The position numbers were made by a program, and so were the translations under genes. From Mycobacterium vicinigordonae (GTDB taxonomy: Bacteria > Actinomycetota > Actinomycetes > Mycobacteriales > Mycobacteriaceae): a DNA stretch of 64,000 nt. The stretch's first letter is position 1, and each line of letters begins with the position of its first letter. The stretch spans positions 5,642,001 through 5,706,000 of the forward strand of contig NZ_CP059165.1 in NCBI RefSeq assembly GCF_013466425.1. The letters run 5' to 3'. Positions 6,724 to 21,598 of the stretch are shown here, piece by piece. The notes below the pieces were generated by a model that was not told the origin of the DNA, made no database searches, and saw only the letters and a program-made list of their open reading frames with translations.

Positions 6724-9700
6724 ATGGCATTCGACAAACCGTCGCCCGTGACGGAGTTGACTCAGGAGCTGCGGCTCGCCACGACCATGACCGGCGGGGT
6801 CAGCCTGGCGGTTTGGATGGCCGGGGTGGCCCGGGAAATCAACCTGCTGGCCCAAGCCTCGCAATGGCGCCGCCAAGGCGGACCCTTTCCGGCCGACAGC
6901 CGACTCAGCAAGCAATCGGCTGAGGCACTGCGCCTGTACGCGGGACTGATCGACCTGCTCGACATGATCGTCGACGTCGACGTCCTATCCGGGACCAGCG
7001 CCGGCGGCATCAACGCGGCCCTGCTCGCATCGTCGCGAATATCCGGCGCCGACCTGGGCGGACTTCGCGACCTGTGGCTGGACCTCGGCGCGTTGACCGA
7101 CCTACTGCGCGACCCCCGCGACGAGGACACCCCGTCGCTGCTGTACGGCGACGAGCGGATGTACGCCGCCCTGGCGACGCAGATCCCCCGGCTCGAGACC
7201 GGACCATTCCCACCCGCGGCGTTCACCGGCGGCCCGCGCACCCCGTCCACCACCCTGTACGTCACGACCACCCTGCTCGCCGGCGAGACCAGCCGGTTCA
7301 CCGATTCATTCGGCACCCTCGTCCAAGACGTCGACCGGCGTGGTGTGTTCACCTTCACCGAGACCGAGCTGCTCGAACCGGGTACGGTCGCGGCCCTGGC
7401 GCTGGCGGCGCGCAGCTCGGCGTCGTTTCCGATCGCGTTCGAGCCGTCGTTCCTGCCCTTCACCCAGGGGACCCCAGCCGCCGGAAAGATCCCGGCCCGG
7501 CCACCGATGGCGCCGTTCGCCAACATCAGTCGCGCCCACTGGGTCGCCGACGGCGGCCTGCTGGACAACCGGCCGATCGACGTGCTGCTCAAGCGCATCT
7601 TCGATCGCCCAGCCCGCCGCCCGGTGCGGCGGGTGCTGCTTTTTGTGGTGCCGTCGTCGGGGCCCGCGCCAGACATAGCTCGCGACGTCCCAGCCGATGA
7701 CCTCGAGCACCCGCTCGGGCTGGTCGACGGGCTGCTCAAGGACCTCTCCGCGATCACCACCCAATCCATCGCCGCCGACCTGCGTCAGATCCGGGCCCAC
7801 CAGGACAGCATGGCGGCACGTACCGACGGCAAACTGCGGCTGGCCGAGCTCGCGGCCCAGCTGCCCGAGGGTGCCCGGCTGCTGACGCCCGCGCTGCTGG
7901 ACGACTACCGCTCCCGCGAGGCGACGCGACATGCACACGACCTCACCGACGCGCTACTGCGCCAGCTCGGTACCGGCGTCCCGAAAAGCTGGGCAGCCGA
8001 ACTCGCCATCGGTGGCGATGCCGAGAAGGTATGCCGGAAACAGATCACCGAATCGATCCTGAGTCGTCGGGACGCGCAGCCGCGCCTACCGCTGGGTCCT
8101 GCGGATCTGGCCCGGTACGGCCAACCCGGCTACGACCTCGCCAAGAGCTGCGCGCTGGCCGTCGTGCGGGCGGCCTACCAGCTGGCGACGTCCGACGACG
8201 ACATCGCCGACTTGACCGCACTCACGAAGGGGATCCACGCCGCCTGCCCGCCCCCGGATCCGGTGGACTCGGGCGCGCTGGTGCGAGCAGTCTTCGCGAA
8301 ACCCGCTGTCCGACAGGGAAGTTTGAAAGATGCGGCCACCATGATCGCGGCCGAACAGCTGCGCCGATCCGAGGTGCCGCAGGACGGTTGGGCCAAGCTG
8401 GGCAGGGTACTGGTCGACGGGTACCCAGCCTTGAAGAGATTGGCGGACAAGGCTTTACCCGCTGACGATGCCGCACCTGGGTCGCCGCTAGCGCTTGACG
8501 GTGCCGCAGCCGGTCAGCTGCACACGTACCTGCGCTACCTCCGTCCGGCCACCGACCCCGGGGAGGTGGCCACCCGATTGTTCGACCTGGCGGCAGCCCA
8601 GCGCGCAATGCTGCCCGCCGACGCGGACATCGACCAGTCGGTCGAGCTGGTACAGGTCAGCGCCGACACACGCAGTCTGCTGGCGCCGGACTGGCAGACC
8701 GCGCAGCAGAAGCTGACCGGGATGCAGTTCCACCACTTCGGCGCCTTTTACAAGCGATCCTGGCGCTCCAACGACTGGATGTGGGGACGGTTGGACGGGG
8801 CCGGGTGGCTGGTCCATGTGCTGCTTGATCCGCGCCGCGTCCGCTGGGTCGTAGCAGCCCGCCCGCAGGCGACCGAAAGTGGCGCAAAGTGGTTCGTGCA
8901 ACATCTCAAAGCGCTTGGGGCCCCGGACTTTCCGGCTCACGGTTACCGGCTGGCGACAGTCGGCGGCGACTCTGGACGACTGACCGAGGACACGGTGCTG
9001 CGCGAACTGGCCTTCGTCGACAATCCGGCCGTCCCGATGCCGCCGAGCCTGCCGGCCACCTCGATGTGGCTGGCGCAGCTATGGCAACGACGCGTGCTGG
9101 ACGAGGAACTGGACGAGCTGGCCGGCACGGTGCTCGACCCGAACACCAACGACCAACCCGACTGGAGCCCGGCCAGATCCCGAACTTGGGCCAAAAAGGT
9201 ACTCGCCGCAGCCCCGGGTGAGTCGAAATACGCTCTGCTGAACGAGGATCCGGTGGCCCGCGAGACGTTCAACAGCGACCGGGGCTCACCGCTGATGGCT
9301 CACACCGTCGCCAAGGCCGCCGCGACGGCATCGGGCGCGGTGGGGTCGGTACGGCAACTGCCCGGTGTCGTCAAGCCGCCGATCGCCACGGTGCGAACAC
9401 TGACGCTGGCCGCATACCGGGTGGTATCGCTGACCAAAGGGATCGCGAAGCGGACGTTGACCGCCGGAGCGGCACTGCTGGTGTTGGGACTGGCCGCCGC
9501 GGTTCAGTCGGCCACGTTAATTGGTGTGACAGGACTGACCATGGCCGGTGTCGGCGGCTACCTGATCGTGCTGGGCACCTGGCAGCTCTCGAGCCGTCTG
9601 CTCTTCGCCCTAGTGTCGGCAACCCTTGTCGGAGCCGTACTTTCGCTGGCCACACCCGTGGTGCGCGCGTTCCTGTTTGGCGACCGCGAGCATTCCGGCT

Positions 9701-13153: not shown

Positions 13154-13930
13154 TCAGGCGTGCGTGCCGCCGTCGATGCGGATCTCGGTGCCAGTGATGA
13201 ACTGGCCGTCGTCGGACACCAGCATCGCGATGACACCGGCAACCGCCGACGGGTCGGCCATCCCGGCGCCGCTGGATGTCTCGGTGGTGGGCAGAATCGG
13301 CATCAACCGGCCGAACAGCGACCAGTCGGCGTCCGCGGGGATGTATCCGCCGGTGGCATCGGTGATCCCGGACTTGATGCTGCCCGGCGCCACGCACACC
13401 GCGCGCAGCCCGGCCTTGGCGTATTCGAGCGCCAGCGCGTGCGTGAAAGACTGCACCCCGCCCTTGCTGGCGGCGTAGGCCGCCATATAGGGGTGGGCGA
13501 AACTCGCCGAGGTGGAGCTGAAGTTCACGATCGAGCTGTGCGGGTTGTCCAGCAGCGCCGGCAACGCCTCGCGGACCACCAGGAAAGTGCCGGTCAGATT
13601 GACGGTGAGGATCTGGTTCCACAGTTCAAGGCTGGTCTGGGTGGTGTGGGCGGCACGCAACATGCCGGCCGCGTTGACCACCGAATCCAGGCCGCCCAGG
13701 GTGTCGACGGCCGAGCGCACCCCGTCGACCACCGAACGCTCGTCGGCGACATTCATCTCCAGCCCGGTGAATCGGCTGTCAGTTCTGCTCCGGGTGGCCG
13801 CCAGACCGGCCGCGGCGATGTCCGCGCCGACCACCGCCGCACCTTCGTCGAGCAACCGCAGCGCCGTCGCCTGGCCGATCCCCGACCCGGCACCGGTCAC
13901 CAGGATCCGCCGCCCTTCCAGCCGCTTCAC
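13154..13930 (-). CDS. Short-chain dehydrogenase/reductase (SDR)
   Basis: 258 residues. The start is GTG 13930, which overlaps the nitroreductase stop as GTGA. Rossmann motif TGAGSGIG at 12-19, NAAG after strand 4, active-site Ser in FSSTSAS and YAASK, and an IDGGTHA end typical of classical SDRs. The GADIA acidic stretch after strand 2 suggests NAD(H) preference. It is the last gene of an SDR-nitroreductase-SDR run that begins at 15472 behind a KstR-like box. Its place beside cpsA recalls M. tuberculosis Rv3485c, but orthology is not shown. Substrate is unknown; a hydroxysteroid or hydroxyacyl compound is plausible from the context. Confidence 0.85.
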   Translation of the reverse strand: MKRLEGRRILVTGAGSGIGQATALRLLDEGAAVVGADIAAAGLAATRSRTDSRFTGLEMNVADERSVVDGVRSAVDTLGGLDSVVNAAGMLRAAHTTQTSLELWNQILTVNLTGTFLVVREALPALLDNPHSSIVNFSSTSASFAHPYMAAYAASKGGVQSFTHALALEYAKAGLRAVCVAPGSIKSGITDATGGYIPADADWSLFGRLMPILPTTETSSGAGMADPSAVAGVIAMLVSDDGQFITGTEIRIDGGTHA

Positions 13931-14580
13931 TGGAACGCCCGGTTGCCGTACCGGTCCAGCGACACGAATTCGCCGACCGGCCTGCGGGAGGTGGGACCGT
14001 ACTTACCCATCGGCCAGCCCAGCGGGATCACCGCGCACGGGGTGACATTCCACGGCAGGCCCAGCACCCGCTTCGCGGCGAACGTGCTCCACAGCGGCAA
14101 GGTGATCAGCGCCGCGCCCAGCCCGGCCGCGCGGGCCGCCAGCAACAGGTTCTGCACCGCGGGATAGATCGACCCGTAGGCGCTGCTGACAGCGACCGGC
14201 GGAAAGGGCGGGATGACACCTTTGAGGCAGGCCACCACGACCACGGGGATGTCGTCGAAGTGCTCAGCCTGCCAGCGCACGGCCTTCTCGATGCGCAGCA
14301 TCTTCTCGTCCATCCGCTTTTCCAGGGCGCGCTTGTAGAGCGGCCCGAAGGTGTTCATCGCCGCGCGATTCAACCGGCCCAGCTTCGCAACGACCCGGCG
14401 GTCCTTGACGACGATGAACTCCCAGTTCTGCGCGTTCGAACCGGTGGGTGCCTTCATCGCCAATTCGAGCAGGTGCAGGATCAGTGAGTCGTCGACCGGG
14501 TCGCTCTTGAGCCGACGGATTGCACGCTGGGTGCGCATCGCCTCTTCGAGCGGCATGTTGAGGGGTTGCTGTTGAGCCAT
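13927..14580 (-). CDS. Nitroreductase-family flavoprotein
   Basis: 217 residues from ATG 14580 (another ATG three codons upstream is possible). Nitroreductase fold signatures: RAIRRLKSDPV near the N-terminus (FMN phosphate contacts), the MKAPTGSNAQNWEF motif, QNLLLAARAAGLGAALITLP, and a C-terminal VIPLGWPMGKYGP. Such enzymes use FMN and NAD(P)H to reduce nitro groups, quinones, enones or flavins. A role in reducing an alpha,beta-unsaturated intermediate is inferred from its SDR neighbours on both sides. It overlaps the downstream SDR by 4 bases and follows the other SDR after 43 bases, so co-transcription is likely. Confidence 0.85.
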   Translation of the reverse strand: MAQQQPLNMPLEEAMRTQRAIRRLKSDPVDDSLILHLLELAMKAPTGSNAQNWEFIVVKDRRVVAKLGRLNRAAMNTFGPLYKRALEKRMDEKMLRIEKAVRWQAEHFDDIPVVVVACLKGVIPPFPPVAVSSAYGSIYPAVQNLLLAARAAGLGAALITLPLWSTFAAKRVLGLPWNVTPCAVIPLGWPMGKYGPTSRRPVGEFVSLDRYGNRAFQ

Positions 14581-14623
14581 GACCCTCATTCCAGCACCGG
14601 CCGGCCCGCCCGCAAACCGCGGG

Positions 14624-15472
14624 TCAGCCGACGGGGTCTGACACCACTCCGCGCAGGGCGTCGGCACCGAACATCTGCTCCATCATCGACGAGTAGTCCG
14701 GCCCGCGGCGCACCATGTGGCCGCCGTCGACGTTGATGCACTGCCCGGTGATGTAGCTGGCGGCATCGCTGAGCAGGAACATCGCCAGGTTGGCCACGTC
14801 CTCGACTTCACCCACCCGCGGCAGCGGGGTGCACTGCGCGTAGTCGCCACTGATCTCCGGTGACTGGATGACGCTGGCGTTCACCAGGTCGGTGCGGATC
14901 AGGCCCGGCCGGATGCTGTTCGCCCGCACCCAAGACGCCCCGAGCTCGTCGGCGGCCAGCTGCATCATGTGGTCGATCGCCGACTTGGTGACACCGTAGG
15001 GCCCGAACCACCGGTGGGTGTTGCTGGCCGCGATCGACGAGATCGCCACGAACGACCCTCCGCCTCCGCGCACCAGCTCCCGAGCCACATGTTTGAGGAC
15101 GTACATCGTGCCGTTGACGTTGAGGTCGACGGTGCGGCGCCACTGCTCGGAGTCGGTGTGGGTGAGCGGGCCGACGGTCAGCGACCCGCCGGCGCTGTGC
15201 ACGGCGCCGTGCAGCCGGCCATGCCATGCTGTCGCGGCGTCCACCACCCGGGCGACCTCGCCCTCGTTGGTGACGTCGGCAGGTTCGTAGCGGATCGAGC
15301 CGGGCAGTTGCAGGCCCTCGATCTCCTTGACGGCCTCGGCCAGCCGGTCGGCGTTGCGGCCCATGATCATCACCGACGCGCCGCCGTTCACCAGCCCGGT
15401 TGCGACCCCCTTGCCGATACCGCTACCGCCGCCGGTGACCAGATACGTGCGGTCCTGGAATGAAAGCTGCAC
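14624..15472 (-). CDS. SDR-family oxidoreductase under a KstR-like box
   Basis: 282 residues from GTG 15472, with GGGAGG about 8 bases upstream. Motifs: TGGGSGIG at 13-20, GRNADR after strand 2 (basic, so NADP(H) is likely), SAGG, SSIAAS, YGVTK catalytic pair and a C-terminal INVDGGHMVRRGPDY extension. The extended tail resembles 2,4-dienoyl-CoA reductase-like or 3-oxoacyl reductase-like SDRs of sterol and fatty acid metabolism. It opens the three-gene run with the nitroreductase and second SDR. A perfect TnnAACnnGTTnnA site 24 bases upstream suggests repression by KstR and induction by sterol. Confidence 0.85.
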   Translation of the reverse strand: MQLSFQDRTYLVTGGGSGIGKGVATGLVNGGASVMIMGRNADRLAEAVKEIEGLQLPGSIRYEPADVTNEGEVARVVDAATAWHGRLHGAVHSAGGSLTVGPLTHTDSEQWRRTVDLNVNGTMYVLKHVARELVRGGGGSFVAISSIAASNTHRWFGPYGVTKSAIDHMMQLAADELGASWVRANSIRPGLIRTDLVNASVIQSPEISGDYAQCTPLPRVGEVEDVANLAMFLLSDAASYITGQCINVDGGHMVRRGPDYSSMMEQMFGADALRGVVSDPVG

Positions 15473-15528: not shown

Positions 15529-16464
15529 TTAGGGCTCGTCGCGGCGGGCGACCTTGGTGGGCCGGGCGGTGCGCCAGTCCTCTACGTCCGGCGGCAACCC
15601 GACCGGGAACCTGTTCTCGTTGTGCGCCGCCCAGTGCGCGTGGCCGAGTTCGTGGACGTGGAACGCGTGCCGCAGCGCCTCGGTGAAACCCATCGCGTCG
15701 GAAGCCGCGTTGACCGACGCCTTCACCAGCAGCGAGGCCATCGTCGGACGCTCGGCGATACGCCGCGCGAAGGCCAGTGTCTTGTCGTCCAGCTCGTCGA
15801 CCGGGAAGACCTTGGACACCATGCCGAGCCGGTAGGCTTCGTCGGCGTCCAGCGAATCGCCGGTCAGCAGTAGCTCTTTGGCCTTCCGCGGGCCGAATTC
15901 CCAAGGGTGCGCGTAGTATTCGACGCCCGGCATGCCCAGCCGGACCGCGACCACGTCGCTGAACTTCGCATTGTCGGCCGCGACGATCAAATCGCACGCC
16001 CAGATCAGCATCAGCCCCGCCGAAATCGCGTTGCCCTGCACCTGAGCGATGGTGATCTTGCGCAGATCGCGCCAGCGCCGGGTGTTCTCGAAGAAGAAAT
16101 GCCACTCCTGGTGGTACAGCTTCTCCACAATCGGCTCCAGGGTGGCTCCATGCGAACGGAAGGTCGGATGCTGCGTCGGTCCCGGCTTTCGCTCCGCCAA
16201 CGCTGCCTCAGAACCCAGGTCGTGGCCGGCCGAGAAGTTGCGACCGCGCGCGGCCAGAATCACCACCCGCACGGTGTCGTCGGCCTCGGCCCGCAAGAAC
16301 GCCTCGTCGAGCTGCACCAGCAGGGTGCGGTTCTGCGCGTTGTGCTCTGCGGGCCGGTTCAGCCAGATCCGGGCGATGCGTCCCTCGTCGAGCGTTTCGT
16401 AGGCCACCATCTCGGGGGCCGCGGGCACCTCGGCGTTGGCGTCGGTCTGGTCGGAGAGTGTCAT
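15529..16464 (-). CDS. Enoyl-CoA hydratase/isomerase family protein
   Basis: 311 residues from ATG 16464 (MTLSDQTDAN...). Crotonase features: oxyanion strand VVILAARGRNFSAGHDLGS, and a second region KITIAQVQGNAISAGLMLIWACDLIVA. At about 311 residues it is longer than the usual 260. It has an insert with HQEWHFFFENTRRWRDL between the two oxyanion regions and an extended C-terminus. VVAVRLGMPGVEYYAHPWEFG departs from the usual catalytic Glu pattern, so hydratase activity is uncertain. It sits between the ACP/AMP-ligase cluster and the KstR-boxed SDR; a palindrome just upstream may give it its own promoter. Confidence 0.85.
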   Translation of the reverse strand: MTLSDQTDANAEVPAAPEMVAYETLDEGRIARIWLNRPAEHNAQNRTLLVQLDEAFLRAEADDTVRVVILAARGRNFSAGHDLGSEAALAERKPGPTQHPTFRSHGATLEPIVEKLYHQEWHFFFENTRRWRDLRKITIAQVQGNAISAGLMLIWACDLIVAADNAKFSDVVAVRLGMPGVEYYAHPWEFGPRKAKELLLTGDSLDADEAYRLGMVSKVFPVDELDDKTLAFARRIAERPTMASLLVKASVNAASDAMGFTEALRHAFHVHELGHAHWAAHNENRFPVGLPPDVEDWRTARPTKVARRDEP

Positions 16465-16494: not shown

Positions 16495-16518
16495 TTACAC
16501 ATTACGGCTAGTGTGTAA
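16495..16518. promoter_or_regulatory. Inverted repeat upstream of the enoyl-CoA hydratase gene
   Basis: TTACACA and TGTGTAA form perfect 7-bp arms separated by 10 bases, starting 31 bases upstream of the ATG at 16464 and ending 30 bases past the ACP stop. The arms are AT-rich against a GC-rich background. It could be a regulator site or a promoter-overlapping operator. Confidence 0.5.
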
Positions 16519-16547
16519 GCGCGCCGCTGCTGGGTTGACGCGGGTCG

Positions 16548-16781
16548 TCAGCGCCGTTGCGCGTCAACCCAGTCGATGACCTCCCGCACCGTCTGCAGTG
16601 GCGCATCGGGATCTTCGAGCCGCATCTCCAGGTGCGCCTCCAGGGTGGCAACCAATTCCATTTTGCGAGGCGAGTCGTAGCCCAGGTCCTCCACCAGGTC
16701 CGAGTCGGCGGTAACCGGGGCCATCCGGTCCGGCGCCAGGGCCGCGACGATACCCACGATCGATTCGTCGAACGCATTCAC
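16548..16781 (-). CDS. Stand-alone acyl carrier protein
   Basis: 77 residues, starting at GTG 16781, which overlaps the AMP-ligase stop (GTGA). It is acidic and helical. The phosphopantetheine site lies in LVEDLGYDSPRKMELV (Asp-Ser with downstream M-E-L), around residue 36. The C-terminus (LQTVREVIDWVDAQRR) is the usual ACP helix 4. Coupled translation with the fatty acyl-AMP ligase indicates that the ligase loads this ACP. With the alpha-oxoamine synthase next door, the acyl-ACP is the likely acyl donor for a decarboxylative condensation with an amino acid. Confidence 0.88.
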   Translation of the reverse strand: MNAFDESIVGIVAALAPDRMAPVTADSDLVEDLGYDSPRKMELVATLEAHLEMRLEDPDAPLQTVREVIDWVDAQRR

Positions 16782-18427
16782 AGTGCACTCACCTCTCCGA
16801 AGAGCTCCTTGGCCGCGACGTGGCGCAGCTTTCCCGAGGCGGTTTTGGGAACTTCGCCTTTGCCGACCAGCAGCACTGTCGGACTCATCCCTGTCGCACC
16901 CAGCACCCTGCGGGTGATCTCCCGGCGGATCTCCCGCCCCTGGTCGGCAGGATCGCGCTGGACCGTCTCGGCGACGATCCGGATCTCCTCGCGTCGATCC
17001 GGCAGCGTGACCCCGAAAGCGACCACCCCGCCGCGCCGAACGCCGTCGACCGACGCGGCCAGTCGCTCGATGTCGGCGGGAAAGATGTTGCGGCCGGCGA
17101 CGATGATGACGTTCTTGAGCCGTCCGCACACCACGATTTCGCCCTCGTCGGTGAGGTAGCCGAGGTCGCCGGTGCCAAACCAGCCGTCGTCGCCGACGGC
17201 GTCGACCTCACCGTCGGGGGTCAGGTAGTGACTGGTCACCGCGTCGCCCCGGATATGCAACTCACCCATCTGGCGCGCCGGTTGGCTGTGTCCGTCCTGA
17301 TCGACGATCCGGACTTCCATGCCGGACACCGGACGGCCGAGCAGCACCAACTGCTTCTGCGGAGCGTCGCAGCCGCACGCGGTCACCGCGCGGCCCCGGA
17401 GTTCCAGTTCCTCGGCACACACTGTTTCGAAGGCCAGCGGCCGGTCCACCGGCGAGAACGACACCGCGACGGTGGCCTCGGCGAGACCATAGGCCGCGCC
17501 GACCGCCGCTCGCCGCATCCCGAAGCGGGCTGCCTGCGCGGTGAACTCGAACATGGTGGCCGGATCTATCGGTTCGGCACCCGAGACGACGCAGCGCAGC
17601 GCACTGAGGTCGTAGGCGCCATCCTCGACAGCTTTGAGGCGGCGGCTGACGATCGAGTACGCGAAGTTGGGCGCCGCAGTGACGGTGGCCCGCTGCTCGC
17701 TCAGGACCTGGATCCACTGCAGCGGCGACCTCACGAACTCGGTCGGGGGGATGTAGACCGCGCCGTTGCCGGCCCACATCGGCGAGAGCAGGTAAGCGAT
17801 GAGTCCCATGTCGTGGGAGAGCGGCAGCCAGCTCATCGTGACGTCTGCGTCGGAGTCGATGTCCACTTCGGCCACCATGGCCGAAATGTCGGCACACAGA
17901 TTGCCGTGGGTGATCGCCACTGCCTTGGGGTCACCGGTGGACCCGGAGGTGAGCTGGTAGAGCGCGACGTCGTCGTCGGTGGTCTGCCAGTCTTCGGCGG
18001 CGATGTCCGGCCAGGTCTCGGGGATCTCGATAACTCGGTATCCGTCCGCCCGCAATGCCCCGGCGATCGCCGAGAACGGTTGTCCGACAACCACGCACTG
18101 TGCGCCGAGCATGGCCAACGCACGCAGGGTACCGGCATGCCACTGTGCCAGATCGGCCTGCGAGGTCGGCTGCTGGAGCATGGTCATCGCGGCGCCGGCC
18201 TTCCAGGTGCCCTGCAACACCACGGCGACGTCCTGGGCGTTGGCGGCCAGGACGCCCACCCTGTCGCCGCGGGCGACGCCCTCGGCGACCAGCCGTCCGG
18301 CGACTCTGGTTGCGGCCTGGTTGATGTCCTGCCAGCTGAGGAAGCGCAAATCGGTCGCGGTGCCGAAGCGCAAGCCGGTGGCGGAATTCGCCGCCACTTT
18401 GTCGATGACTTCGGTCAGCCTACTCAT
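16778..18427 (-). CDS. Fatty acyl-AMP ligase (FadD/FAAL-like)
   Basis: 549 residues. Adenylation motifs: LTSGSTGDPKAVAITHGN, WLPLSHDMGLI (typical of FAALs), a Y-G-L-A-E-A-T-V motif, FGTGDLGYL, GRLKNVIIVAGRNIFPADIE and the final KTASGKLRH with the adenylating Lys. The LPLSHDMGL and AYGLAEAT patterns favour acyl-AMP formation and transfer to a carrier protein over CoA ligation. Its stop overlaps the ACP start, which supports the ACP as acceptor. The alpha-oxoamine synthase gene lies 89 bases upstream on the same strand. The chain length of the acid is not readable. Confidence 0.88.
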   Translation of the reverse strand: MSRLTEVIDKVAANSATGLRFGTATDLRFLSWQDINQAATRVAGRLVAEGVARGDRVGVLAANAQDVAVVLQGTWKAGAAMTMLQQPTSQADLAQWHAGTLRALAMLGAQCVVVGQPFSAIAGALRADGYRVIEIPETWPDIAAEDWQTTDDDVALYQLTSGSTGDPKAVAITHGNLCADISAMVAEVDIDSDADVTMSWLPLSHDMGLIAYLLSPMWAGNGAVYIPPTEFVRSPLQWIQVLSEQRATVTAAPNFAYSIVSRRLKAVEDGAYDLSALRCVVSGAEPIDPATMFEFTAQAARFGMRRAAVGAAYGLAEATVAVSFSPVDRPLAFETVCAEELELRGRAVTACGCDAPQKQLVLLGRPVSGMEVRIVDQDGHSQPARQMGELHIRGDAVTSHYLTPDGEVDAVGDDGWFGTGDLGYLTDEGEIVVCGRLKNVIIVAGRNIFPADIERLAASVDGVRRGGVVAFGVTLPDRREEIRIVAETVQRDPADQGREIRREITRRVLGATGMSPTVLLVGKGEVPKTASGKLRHVAAKELFGEVSAL

Positions 18428-18516
18428 TGTTCGAAAACGTCCTGTCCTAAAGCGGGAAGCGAGCCGGAAAACTCCGAATGACGTTCTAATTTTGGTGAGG
18501 GTTCGAAATGGACGTC

Positions 18517-19791
18517 TTAGACGAATTCGCTTGCCTGGTCTTTAACGCTGGGGACGGCCGCGGCGATGATTTCGACGGCCCGCTCAATCTGGGCACTGGA
18601 ATGCGCCGCCGAAACACCGCACCGCATCATGCTGTCGTTTTCGCCGACGGCGGGCGCAAGGGCCAGCGAGCAGAAGACGCCGTTGTCGAAAGCCTCGTTC
18701 CAGGCCGCGACCGCGTCGTCCTCTTGCCCAATCCACACCGAGACGATCGGCGCCACCACGCGCGACCCGTCGGACCGGATGATGTCGCCGCCCACCTTCA
18801 GTCCATGCGCGGCCAGCCCGTCACGCAGAGCGCGTGAGTTCCGCAGGACCTCGGCAGCGCGCTGCTCCCCCTCCGGACTGCGGATGATCTCGATCGCGGC
18901 GATGGTCGCGGCCAGAGTTCCCGGCGGCGACGTGGCGGTGAACATATGTGGGTTGGAGTACATCTTGAGGAAGTCGACCAGATCCCGCGAACCGACGATG
19001 TAGCCACCCGCCGAGCCCAACGCTTTGGACATGCCGCCCATCAAGATGTCCACGGCGTGCAGGCAACCGAATTCCTCGGCGATGCCGGTGCGTTTGGCAC
19101 CGAATACGCCGACGCTGTGCGCCTCGTCGACGAACAGCCCTACACCGTATTTGCGGGCCAATGCGACGATCCCCTCCATCGGAGCCACGTCACCGTGCAT
19201 CGAGTAGAGGCCGTCGATCGCGATCATCTTGGTGCCGCCACGGTCGGCGGTGCGGATCAGATTGTGTTCCAGCGCCTTCAGGTCATTGTGGGCGAAGTAG
19301 CGCGAGCTGGCCCCGGACAAGCGAATTCCGGCGTGGATCGAGGCGTGCGCTTGGCTGTCGGGCAGCGCGAGATCGCCGACTCCCAGGATGGCCGTGAGCG
19401 CGCCGACGTTGGCTTGATAGCCGCTGGTGTACACCAGCGCCGCCTCGCTGCCGTGCCAGTCGGCCAACAGCTCCTCTAGTTCGACCTTGAGCCGCGACGT
19501 ACCGCAGAACGGGGGCGCGCCTTCACTGGACGTGCCGTGTCGGTCGGTCGCGCGATTGGCCGCGGCGATCAACCGCGCGTCGCCGCCGAGGCCCAGAGAA
19601 TCGTTGGCACCAAGCATGATCCGCGATTTTCCTTCGATGACCGCGGTCGGTCCGGGTGCGGATTCCACCACTCGGAAGAATGGAAGTCGGTCATCGGCGG
19701 CATAAGAACGGAAAGCAGCCAGTCGGCGATCCTGCTGGACCCGCTCGCGCATATTCAGTCTCAAGGTGTTGAACACGCGAATATTAGACAC
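18517..19791 (-). CDS. PLP-dependent alpha-oxoamine synthase (AONS/SPT/KBL family)
   Basis: 424 residues from GTG 19791; no clear ribosome site is visible, and Met14 is an alternative start. Fold-type I PLP features: YTSGYQANVGAL, the His-stacking region DSQAHASIHAG, LYSMHGDVAPM, VDEAHSVGVFG (Asp and His contacts to PLP) and MGGMSKALGSAGGY with the Schiff-base Lys. The N-terminal EGAPPFCGTSRLKVELEE replaces the usual GTGPCGPRG-type motif, so it is not a typical BioF or serine palmitoyltransferase. The family condenses an acyl thioester with glycine, alanine or serine, with loss of CO2, to give an alpha-aminoketone. Its neighbours supply the activated acyl-ACP. A biotin role is less likely without other bio genes. 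Confidence 0.85.
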   Translation of the reverse strand: MSNIRVFNTLRLNMRERVQQDRRLAAFRSYAADDRLPFFRVVESAPGPTAVIEGKSRIMLGANDSLGLGGDARLIAAANRATDRHGTSSEGAPPFCGTSRLKVELEELLADWHGSEAALVYTSGYQANVGALTAILGVGDLALPDSQAHASIHAGIRLSGASSRYFAHNDLKALEHNLIRTADRGGTKMIAIDGLYSMHGDVAPMEGIVALARKYGVGLFVDEAHSVGVFGAKRTGIAEEFGCLHAVDILMGGMSKALGSAGGYIVGSRDLVDFLKMYSNPHMFTATSPPGTLAATIAAIEIIRSPEGEQRAAEVLRNSRALRDGLAAHGLKVGGDIIRSDGSRVVAPIVSVWIGQEDDAVAAWNEAFDNGVFCSLALAPAVGENDSMMRCGVSAAHSSAQIERAVEIIAAAVPSVKDQASEFV

Positions 19792-19985
19792 CGCGCGCGC
19801 GGCTCAGACACAACTTTTCACCAGAACAAAATAAGCAGCCATTCTCCGTTTGCGTTGCCATATTTCGAAATACGCCAGGCGACCTGTTAGTGCTACCGGT
19901 AGCCCGCTGTCGTCTACCGGCGCCGACGGCATCCGCTGAACGACGTGAGTTCCAGCGGCAAGCCGCCGTCGCATACAGTGAACTG

Positions 19986-20150
19986 ATGCCAACAAAAACC
20001 GACCACGCCGATATCGGTGACGTGGAACCGCTGGCCGACAGCACCGCCAGCCAGGCGCGGCGCGTCGTCGCCGCCTACGCCAACGACGCTGACGAGTGCC
20101 GCGTCTTCTTGTCCATGCTCGGCATTGGTCCGGCGAAACACGAGAGCTAA
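19986..20150 (+). CDS. Small conserved protein coupled to otsA
   Basis: 54 residues from ATG 19986. Its TAA shares an A with the otsA ATG (TAATG), so translation is coupled. The sequence ([19 protein letters not shown]..., ending [11 protein letters not shown]) is acidic and helical with no known domain. M. tuberculosis has a gene of similar size (Rv3489) just before otsA. Function is unknown; the tight link suggests a role with OtsA. Confidence 0.6.
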
Positions 20151-21598
20151 TGGCTCGAAAAGCCGGCGCCAGCTACGGGGATTCTGACTTCGTCGTCGTT
20201 GCCAACCGGCTGCCGGTCGACCTGGAACGCCTGCCCGACGGCAGCATCGCCTGGAAGCGCAGCCCCGGCGGTCTGGTCACCGCGCTCGAGCCGTTGCTGC
20301 GTAAACGTCGCGGAGCCTGGGTCGGTTGGCCGGGAGTGGTCGACGCTGACGAGGACCCGATCACCCAGGATGAGCTCACCCTGCACCCGGTCCGGCTCAG
20401 CGCCGACGACGTCGCCGAATACTACGAAGGTTTCTCCAACGCCACGCTGTGGCCGCTGTACCACGACGTCATTGTCAAGCCGAACTACCACCGCGAATGG
20501 TGGGACCGCTACGTCGACGTCAACCGCCGATTCGCCGAGGCGACCTCCCGCGCCGCAGCCAAGGGCGGAACCGTCTGGGTGCAGGACTATCAGCTGCAGC
20601 TGGTGCCCAAAATGCTGCGCGAGCTGCGACCGGATCTCACCATCGGGTTCTTCCTGCACATCCCGTTTCCGCCGGTGGAACTATTCATGCAGATGCCCTG
20701 GCGCACCGAGATCGTCGAAGGTCTGCTGGGCGCCGACCTGGTGGGCTTCCATCTGGCCGGCGGCGCACAGAACTTTCTGATACTGGCCCGACGGCTACTG
20801 GGCGCGGAAACGTCGCGGGGAACCGTCGGCGTGCGGTCCCGGTTCGGCGAGGTTTCACTCGAGTCCCGCAGCGTCCGGGTGGGCGCCTTCCCCATCTCGA
20901 TCGACTCCGCCGAACTCGACCATGCCGCGCGGGACCGCAACGTGCGACGCCGGGCCCGCGAGATCCGCGCCGAGTTGGGCAACCCGCGCAAGATCCTGCT
21001 GGGTGTCGACCGGCTCGACTACACCAAGGGCATCGACGTACGACTCAAGGCGTTCAACGAACTACTCGACGAGGGCCGCGCGAAGCGCGACGACACCGTG
21101 TTGGTCCAGTTGGCCACCCCTAGCCGGGAACGGGTTGAGAGTTACCAGATCCTGCGCAACGACATCGAGCGGCAGGTTGGGCACATCAACGGCGAATATG
21201 CCGAGGTCGGCCACCCGGTGGTGCACTATCTGCACCGGCCCGTCCCCCGCGACGAGCTGATCGCCTTCTTCGTGGCCAGCGACGTCATGCTGGTCACTCC
21301 GCTGCGCGACGGCATGAATCTGGTGGCCAAGGAGTACGTCGCCTGCCGCAGCGATCTGGGCGGCGCTCTGGTGCTGTCCGAATTCACCGGCGCCGCAGCC
21401 GAACTCCACCAGGCCTATCTGGTGAACCCGCACGACCTGGAAGGCGTCAAGGATGCCATCGAGGCCGCGCTCACCCAGTCCGACGAGGAGGGTCGCCGGC
21501 GCATGCGGGCGCTGCGCCGCCAGGTGCTCGCCCACGACGTGGACCGCTGGGCCCGCGCGTTTCTCGACGCCCTCGGCCAAGCCCATTCCTCGGGCTGA
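20150..21598 (+). CDS. otsA: Alpha,alpha-trehalose-6-phosphate synthase
   Basis: 482 residues, starting at the ATG that overlaps the upstream stop. GT20 glycosyltransferase: it makes trehalose-6-phosphate from a nucleotide-glucose donor (mycobacterial enzymes accept ADP- or GDP-glucose) and glucose-6-phosphate. Signatures: [75 protein letters not shown] and the donor-site [14 protein letters not shown] with an E-FTGAA loop. It is about 18 residues shorter at the N-terminus than the M. tuberculosis enzyme. Trehalose is the carrier for mycolate and other lipid transport, and a stress solute. Confidence 0.95.

What the first reader, a model, noticed from the sequence alone, without database searches (positions are those of the whole stretch)
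16548..19791. Acyl-AMP ligase + ACP + alpha-oxoamine synthase: a possible long-chain-base (sphingoid-like) or aminoketone lipid pathway in a mycobacterium
Seen: a fatty acyl-AMP ligase whose stop overlaps a stand-alone ACP start (GTGA), and a PLP alpha-oxoamine synthase 89 bases upstream on the same strand, with a crotonase and two SDRs downstream. Known: alpha-oxoamine synthases condense acyl thioesters with amino acids; in Caulobacter the ceramide pathway uses an SPT together with a dedicated ACP and acyl-ACP synthetase, plus an SDR-type ketone reductase. Inferred: the ligase loads a fatty acid on the ACP, the synthase makes an alpha-aminoketone, and an SDR may reduce it to an amino alcohol. 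I know of no described mycobacterial sphingolipid system. The synthase lacks the GTGPCGPRG-type motif of ordinary SPT/BioF, so the product may be new.
Basis: partly seen in the sequence, partly recalled or inferred. Interest (0 to 1): 0.78.

Follow-up and report, generated by a model that had tools for sequence, protein, structure and literature searches.

The report
Mycobacterial three-gene aminoketone lipid cassette
Three neighbouring genes in a mycobacterium look like a small portable kit that joins a fatty acid to an amino acid, the first step towards sphingolipid-like fats that a recent review says were never described in mycobacteria, and the key enzyme has an unusual active-site loop, so the product may come from a different amino acid.

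Summary
In detail: an alpha-oxoamine synthase (AOS, 18517-19791), a fatty acyl-AMP ligase (FAAL, 16778-18427) and a stand-alone ACP (16548-16781) lie on the minus strand in that order, with an 89-base gap and a GTGA overlap. They form a conserved unit: the trio is in 10 of 297 Mycobacterium genomes (9 intact, 1 broken), at three different chromosomal sites. The neighbouring crotonase and SDRs belong to the resident otsA block and stay behind where the trio is elsewhere, so they are not part of it. Most likely mechanism: FAAL loads a fatty acid on the ACP and the AOS condenses it with an amino acid to an alpha-aminoketone, as the Spt-AcpR-AasR trio of Proteobacteria does. But AOS and FAAL are of other branches (AU test p 0.0145 against one AOS clade), so the kit was probably assembled separately. 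The AOS keeps the catalytic N, H, D, H, K and R, but has [AT]-P-P...K where nearly all compared AOSs have an arginine and a histidine. Its amino acid, and any reduction or N-acylation, are unknown. New variant of a known kind; related AOS kits occur elsewhere in the genus.

The parts
18517..19791 (-). alpha-oxoamine synthase (AOS), 424 aa; PLP lysine K256, H149, D222, H225, R390, N63 kept
19474..19539 (-). substrate loop of the AOS, residues 85-106 (HGTSSEGAPPFCGTSRLKVELE), in place of the GSR...H loop of most AOSs
16778..18427 (-). fatty acyl-AMP ligase (FAAL), 549 aa, NF005850 family, with FAAL-type insertion
16548..16781 (-). stand-alone acyl carrier protein, 77 aa, GYDSPRKMEL around the phosphopantetheine serine, start overlaps FAAL stop (GTGA)
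16538..19963 (.). approximate extent of the cassette: similarity to trio-free relatives stops at about 16518-16537 and resumes at about 19964-19969
15529..16464 (-). crotonase; flanking resident gene, not part of the unit
14624..15472 (-). SDR (NF004528); flanking resident gene, not part of the unit
13927..14592 (-). nitroreductase-family gene (PF00881); flanking, not part
13154..13930 (-). second SDR; flanking resident gene, not part
20150..21598 (+). trehalose-phosphate synthase family gene (otsA by name recalled, PF00982); resident neighbour on the other side

Best explanation
A portable three-gene cassette that makes an alpha-aminoketone lipid. Inferred steps: (1) the FAAL adenylates a free fatty acid; (2) it passes the acyl group to the phosphopantetheine arm of its own ACP, keeping it away from CoA and beta-oxidation; (3) the PLP enzyme forms an external aldimine with an amino acid, attacks the acyl-ACP, loses CO2 and releases a 2-amino-3-ketone (a 3-oxo-sphinganine analogue); (4) unlinked resident enzymes may reduce or acylate it. 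Shown here: gene content, conservation as a unit, low dN/dS, retained catalytic residues, three different chromosomal sites, and an active-site loop shared only by this clade and, in part, by its sister locus L174. Not shown: any chemistry, the amino acid, the chain length, the final lipid.
For: Trio in 10 of 297 genomes, in the order AOS-FAAL-ACP in all ten. Three sites: crotonase/otsA gap (window, G113, G216), SDR/crotonase gap (G237), fixB/acyltransferase gap (6 genomes); crotonase-otsA block without the trio in 7 of 7 genomes looked at, fixB-acyltransferase gap without it in 4 of 4. SPTs are the best solved relatives of the AOS; catalytic residues kept. FAAL insertion present; the best solved relative of the FAAL is 3pbk, which in the tree is nearly identical to the ligase of an E. 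coli cluster with epimerase, ACP and SPT. ACP serine kept in 10 of 10 copies. Proteobacterial precedent: AasR acylates AcpR, SPT uses acyl-AcpR (PMC9386255, abstract and passages). Sister lineage L174, in another genus of the family, has AOS-FAAL-ACP-ACP and also P-P in the loop.
Against: The AOS is below every NCBIfam cut-off (best 324 of 500), so no equivalog is assigned. The loop change (R to P, H to K) could mean a different reaction. No reductase or N-acyltransferase travels with the trio. Of 20 loci of more distant AOS relatives (18 full stretches, 2 cut by contig ends), none had a called gene that matched the FAAL or ACP (genes under 65 aa were not called), and G978 at 46% has none either, so an ACP donor is not a general trait of this branch. 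One carrier has a broken copy (G076), so the function is dispensable there.
Confidence: 0.72

Rival explanations
1. A special case of the best explanation: a true sphingolipid pathway, in which the AOS is a serine palmitoyltransferase making 3-oxo-sphinganine that unlinked enzymes reduce and N-acylate.
For: Best family and structure matches are SPTs; the SPT-type alanine is kept where SulA has lysine (one search read against PMC9304779, passages); in 6 of 10 genomes the trio lies beside a PF13444-type acyltransferase gene, with a PF01553-type one behind it in the 5 where the contig reaches that far.
Against: Below all three SPT cut-offs (324/500, 298/640, 258/670); the GSR...H loop of the SPTs compared is replaced; the two acyltransferase genes are also present, without the trio beside them, in 4 of 4 other carriers, so the adjacency is not specific; no CerR-like gene is linked in the ten loci.
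Confidence: 0.3
2. The AOS is a second BioF or glycine C-acetyltransferase acting in biotin or amino acid metabolism, and the FAAL-ACP pair is a chance neighbour.
For: Source databases name many of its relatives 8-amino-7-oxononanoate synthase, one of them BioF2 of M. liflandii.
Against: bioF score 290 against cut-off 426; the genome has a separate BioF-like gene (401 bits, itself also under that cut-off) beside a 52% BioA homologue; the AOS groups away from BioF, Kbl and ALAS in the trees; the trio is inherited together.
Confidence: 0.04
3. The FAAL-ACP pair feeds another enzyme, and the AOS has lost or changed its chemistry (for example a hydrolase or an aminotransferase-like reaction).
For: Two positions conserved in nearly all compared AOSs are changed.
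Against: The other catalytic residues are kept, dN/dS is low, and order and overlap of the three genes are fixed.
Confidence: 0.12
4. Crotonase, SDRs and nitroreductase form one long pathway with the trio, as the reader proposed for the SDRs.
For: Same strand and close spacing in the window; four of ten carriers have the trio beside crotonase or SDR.
Against: Those genes stay with otsA where the trio is absent (7 of 7 genomes), and the trio is away from them in 6 of 10.
Confidence: 0.04

Closest known systems
Spt-AcpR-AasR trio of Caulobacter and E. coli B (PMC9386255)
   Same: same three activities expected: a dedicated ACP and its own ligase next to an SPT-like enzyme; both ligases are FAAL-type
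   Different: AOS from another branch (AU p 0.0145); ligase of NF005850, not NF006624, 29% identical to the E. coli one; no linked CerR-like epimerase; loop changed; a mycobacterial lineage
Mtb Rv0032-Rv0035 bioF2-acpA-Rv0034-fadD34 (order and sizes recalled; Rv0032 described in PMC12910592) and the like-ordered loci L157, L158
   Same: AOS, stand-alone ACP and FAAL together in mycobacteria; in L157 and L158 the loop arginine is also proline
   Different: extra N-terminal domain and an extra small gene, order AOS-ACP-x-FAAL, AOS 34% and FAAL 32-35% identical, separate clade (AU p 0.003), loop histidine kept
SulA cysteate acyl-ACP transferase (PMC9304779)
   Same: SPT-fold enzyme that takes acyl-ACP
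   Different: diagnostic Lys281 is alanine here
SgaAB and other PKS-AOS systems (PMC12134224)
   Same: AOS expected to condense an ACP-bound chain
   Different: chain made by a PKS; the mycobacterial PKS-linked AOSs form another clade; SgaB itself was not in my trees
MbtM-MbtL FAAL-ACP pair of mycobactin synthesis (recalled)
   Same: FAAL loading a stand-alone ACP; NF004510 MbtM is the second-best family of this FAAL
   Different: 366 bits against cut-off 621; no AOS

Membership tests
Serine palmitoyltransferase (NF047599, NF047600, NF047603) | score over a curated cut-off | tested here: not met
   324/500, 298/640, 258/670; the E. coli and Roseomonas SPT pass NF047599 and P. distasonis passes NF047600
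Serine palmitoyltransferase (NF047599, NF047600, NF047603) | catalytic N, H, D, H, K, R | tested here: met
   N63, H149, D222, H225, K256, R390 (roles from PMC9304779, passages)
Serine palmitoyltransferase (NF047599, NF047600, NF047603) | GSR loop followed by H, as in the four SPTs compared | tested here: not met
   A-P-P and K in the window; R absent and K for H in 18 of 18 clade rows, P-P in 17 of 18
Serine palmitoyltransferase (NF047599, NF047600, NF047603) | 3-oxo-sphinganine from L-serine | not testable with these tools
   needs an assay
BioF | TIGR00858 cut-off and biotin gene context | tested here: not met
   290/426; another gene of the genome sits beside a BioA homologue
CqsA-type autoinducer synthase | NF005526 cut-off | tested here: not met
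   196/428; no CqsA row in the trees
SxtA | place in a tree with SxtA | not tested
   no SxtA sequence was at hand
SulA | Lys281 in place of SPT alanine | tested here: not met
   alanine of FTAT at that position, by my counting from the PLP lysine
Spt-AcpR-AasR module | AOS, ACP and FAAL encoded together | tested here: met
Spt-AcpR-AasR module | AOS of the same clade | tested here: not met
   AU p 0.0145
Spt-AcpR-AasR module | ligase of the AasR family (NF006624) | tested here: not met
   360/600; E. coli ligase 871
Spt-AcpR-AasR module | ligase acylates its own ACP, not CoA | not testable with these tools
   needs purified proteins
Fatty acyl-AMP ligase | FAAL-specific insertion | tested here: met
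   stretch absent from E. coli FadD, present in the window, E. coli FAAL and the PKS-linked FAAL
Acyl carrier protein | phosphopantetheine serine in a D-S motif | tested here: met
   GYDS in 10 of 10 copies; PF00550 24.7/20.8

The most novel reading that the evidence does not exclude
The clade is a new AOS subfamily whose remodelled loop selects an amino acid other than serine, or another acceptor, so that these mycobacteria make an undescribed class of aminoketone or amino alcohol lipid from an ACP-bound fatty acid. The kit arose separately from the proteobacterial one and moves between chromosomal sites as three genes.
Probability: 0.38. Interest if true: 0.82.

Novelty: new variant of a known kind. 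Interest (0 to 1): 0.6.

Why it matters
A 2026 review says sphingolipids have never been described in mycobacteria (PMC12910592, passages). A compact three-gene unit with a proteobacterial precedent makes the question testable in vitro. If the product is real, mycobacteria have a lipid class that lipidomics has missed, found patchily in a few species: M. szulgai by name with the whole trio; an M. liflandii protein 99% identical to the G237 AOS; an M. haemophilum AOS at 65%, whose neighbours I did not see. The likely separate assembly suggests that coupling an oxoamine synthase to a private ACP and ligase is a recurrent way to commit fatty acids to amino lipids.

Tried and rejected
Rejected: BioF identity; SDRs and crotonase as pathway members; common descent with the proteobacterial AcpR-type SPT and with the bioF2-like AOS; a plasmid source (no near DNA match among 72,556 plasmid records; the protein matches there are all under 60% identity).

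Led nowhere or limited: the genome-contig scan gave only two loci (M. szulgai and a 28% relative). AlphaFold was switched off, so there is no model and no structural check of the loop. In one search the own PKS-AOS row was taken in a wrong frame and the own BioF row ran past its stop; both were corrected, and the PKS row is left out of my counts. In one search a Roseomonas hypothetical protein was put in the FAAL tree although it is no FAAL, and a row was labelled Legionella although 3pbk fell beside the E. coli ligase; the first was dropped and the second renamed. The place of the L174 ligase relative to the trio ligases is unresolved (quick tree). For the AOS tree I dropped 16 rows of the set, two trio rows among them, and for its FAAL tree nine mycobacterial rows and two others, for speed. 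P0002 and P0003 were left out of the trees as near-copies of L016 and L015; L117 was left out as identical to the Rubrobacter row. Base composition gave no hint of a foreign origin: the 500-base windows from 16500 to 19499 have 65-69% G+C, like the flanks; only 19500-19999 is lower, 60%. A search for the amino-acid role of this loop in 5-aminolevulinate synthase gave listings only; of PMC5302061 I saw two passages of its reference list and used neither.

Not tested: promoters and repeats at the cassette ends; a transposase or integrase beside it; whether the gene lost at the window's site lies elsewhere in the genome.

Full report
WHAT IS THERE. The window lies at G000:C1:5642001-5706000 of a 6.27-Mb single-contig genome. 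On the minus strand an AOS (18517-19791), a FAAL (16778-18427) and an ACP (16548-16781) follow each other, with 89 bases between the first two and a GTGA overlap between the last two. Pfam gives PF00155, PF00501 and PF00550. Further downstream are a crotonase, an SDR, a nitroreductase-family gene and a second SDR; upstream, on the other strand, is a PF00982 gene, otsA.

IT IS A UNIT OF THREE. A search of 297 Mycobacterium genomes found the AOS at E <= 1e-100 in 10, the window's included. The ACP is beside them in ten of ten. Nine copies are intact and one (G076) is broken in AOS and FAAL. The four-base overlap (GTGA or ATGA) is in nine of nine intact copies. dN/dS is 0.09-0.27 in the 14 comparisons made, with dS near 0.7-1.1 in the six that involve the window. 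In a phylum sample of 396 genomes only the window's own genome has an AOS of this grade (19 of 396 pass 1e-70, the other 18 at 43% or less); in a family sample of 401, four pass 1e-105: the own genome, G277 and two at 46-47%.

IT SITS AT THREE PLACES. The crotonase-otsA block is there without the trio in seven of seven genomes examined, six of them carriers at the other site, and the fixB-acyltransferase gap is there without it in four of four. Similarity between the window and the crotonase-otsA empty sites stops at about 16518-16537 and resumes at about 19964-19969; I called genes in the gap of three empty sites, and two (L146, L150) have a 322-336-aa gene there (DivIVA-like by eye) that is not at this place in the window. 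The fixB gap of G113 and the crotonase-otsA gap of G237 hold other genes. So crotonase and SDRs are resident neighbours. No plasmid record matches the cassette DNA, and its base composition is not unusual.

WHAT THE AOS IS. Its best NCBIfam scores are SPT 324 (cut-off 500), SPT 298 (640) and BioF 290 (426); every family is below its cut-off, while the proteobacterial and Parabacteroides SPTs pass one of theirs. Among solved structures SPTs come first. In trees the trio AOSs form one clade (100/100), apart from the Sphingomonas-Roseomonas-E. coli SPTs; searches place it among actinobacterial SPT-like AOSs, while the order of these branches is open. Holding it with those SPTs is rejected (p-AU 0.0145), as is holding it with the bioF2-like AOSs (p-AU 0.003). 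Both tests carry the usual long-branch caution, and the groups were named after a first tree had been seen.

THE LOOP. N63, H149, D222, H225, K256 and R390, whose counterparts PMC9304779 (passages) gives roles in PLP or substrate binding, are kept. The loop at residues 85-106 is not. In one search I compared 51 rows; one (own PKS-AOS, wrong frame) is dropped. Of the 18 clade rows, some of them near-copies, 18 lack the arginine of G-S-R, 17 have P-P there (P0010 has A-P-A), and 18 have lysine for the following histidine. Of the 32 other rows (two of them identical), 31 have the arginine (E. coli BioF does not) and 32 the histidine. One search adds counter-examples: two bioF2-like rows have proline for the arginine but keep the histidine, and two PKS-linked AOSs have tyrosine for the histidine. 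By my counting from Asn53 the loop begins near SulA Ala78', whose backbone that paper shows holding the Lys281' side chain that closes the active site. From memory, a threonine in this loop governs amino acid choice in 5-aminolevulinate synthase; I saw no text for it (listing only). I infer altered substrate choice; SulA-type cysteate use is not supported, as its Lys281 is alanine here.

THE LIGASE AND ACP. The FAAL passes NF005850 (708.5/572) and has the FAAL-type insertion. It groups with mycobacterial FAALs of 43-46% identity rather than with the E. coli ligase, 29%; only 20 mycobacterial FAALs and three others were in that tree, and its root is uncertain. The ACP serine is in ten of ten copies.

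PRECEDENT. In Caulobacter the ligase AasR acylates only AcpR of the thiols tested, and SPTs from C. crescentus, E. coli B and S. wittichii prefer acyl-AcpR (PMC9386255, abstract and passages). The E. coli locus held here has ligase, epimerase, ACP, AOS in that order. The window trio has the same composition without the epimerase.

A SISTER LOCUS. G722, in another genus of the family, has an AOS (46%) with loop TGTPPLNGT, a FAAL (46%) and two ACPs in a row, with a WS/DGAT-type acyltransferase behind, and a BTAD regulator, a weak P450 match, TetR and MMPL genes in front; its AOS is sister to the trio clade (99/96). In one search, without it, db_P0022, which has the GSR loop, held that place. This suggests that the AOS-FAAL-ACP link is older than the cassette, and that in that genus it may feed an acylated, exported lipid. 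G978 (46%) has the usual GSR loop and no FAAL match among its called genes.

OTHER AOS KITS IN THE GENUS. 42 of 297 genomes have an AOS hit at 1e-45, the ten carriers included. Besides the trio I saw a KS-AT-ACP-AOS protein with FAAL-like and MmpL-like genes (own genome), PKS plus separate AOS plus MmpL-like genes, AOS-ACP-x-FAAL loci (L157, L158), and AOS with an epimerase-type, an acyl-CoA-dehydrogenase-like and an MMPL gene. A discussion passage of PMC12134224 reports that others found ceramide genes in several Actinobacteria.

LITERATURE. Searches for mycobacterial AOS, bioF2 with fadD34, mycobacteria with SPT and bacterial sphingolipid, FAAL with SPT (none), AasR with AcpR, bacterial ceramide synthase with SPT or Actinobacteria and M. 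marinum with BioF and ACP listed no title or abstract about this trio; I did not read all the listed papers, and the library holds only open-licence papers.

VERDICT. A real, conserved, portable three-gene unit; the FAAL-ACP-AOS chemistry is likely (0.72) but unassayed; the product is open; interest 0.6.

Noticed in passing
L024 5279-16973 (own genome, about G000:C1:1419278-1430972): A 1494-aa KS-AT-ACP-AOS protein followed by a FAAL-like gene, an MmpL-like gene and a P-type ATPase-like gene (the last two by eye); PKS-AOS and FAAL recur together in L166 and L167, the MmpL in L166.
   Followed up: partly
L157 5097-9842 and L158 4020-8762: AOS with N-terminal domain, ACP, small gene, FAAL: the order and sizes I recall for Mtb Rv0032-Rv0035, in genomes with contigs of 5.6 Mb, although PMC12910592 calls Rv0032 specific to the M. 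tuberculosis complex.
   Followed up: partly
L102-L106: AOS (38-39%) with an NAD-epimerase-type gene and an acyl-CoA-dehydrogenase-like gene (Pfam-scanned in L103 and L105 only) and an MmpL-like gene nearby: a possible ceramide-type pathway in other mycobacteria.
   Followed up: partly
L174 855-12001: AOS-FAAL-ACP-ACP with WS/DGAT acyltransferase, weak P450 match, BTAD regulator, TetR and MMPL in another genus: looks like a whole lipid gene cluster.
   Followed up: partly
L017 about 7281-7350: A short tandem repeat lengthens the C-terminus of the FAAL just before its stop.
   Followed up: no
L152 6109-7761: In G113 the fixB-acyltransferase gap holds a gene that looks by eye like a PE-family protein; G216 (L153) has a gap of like size in which no gene was called.
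   Followed up: no
   Followed up: no
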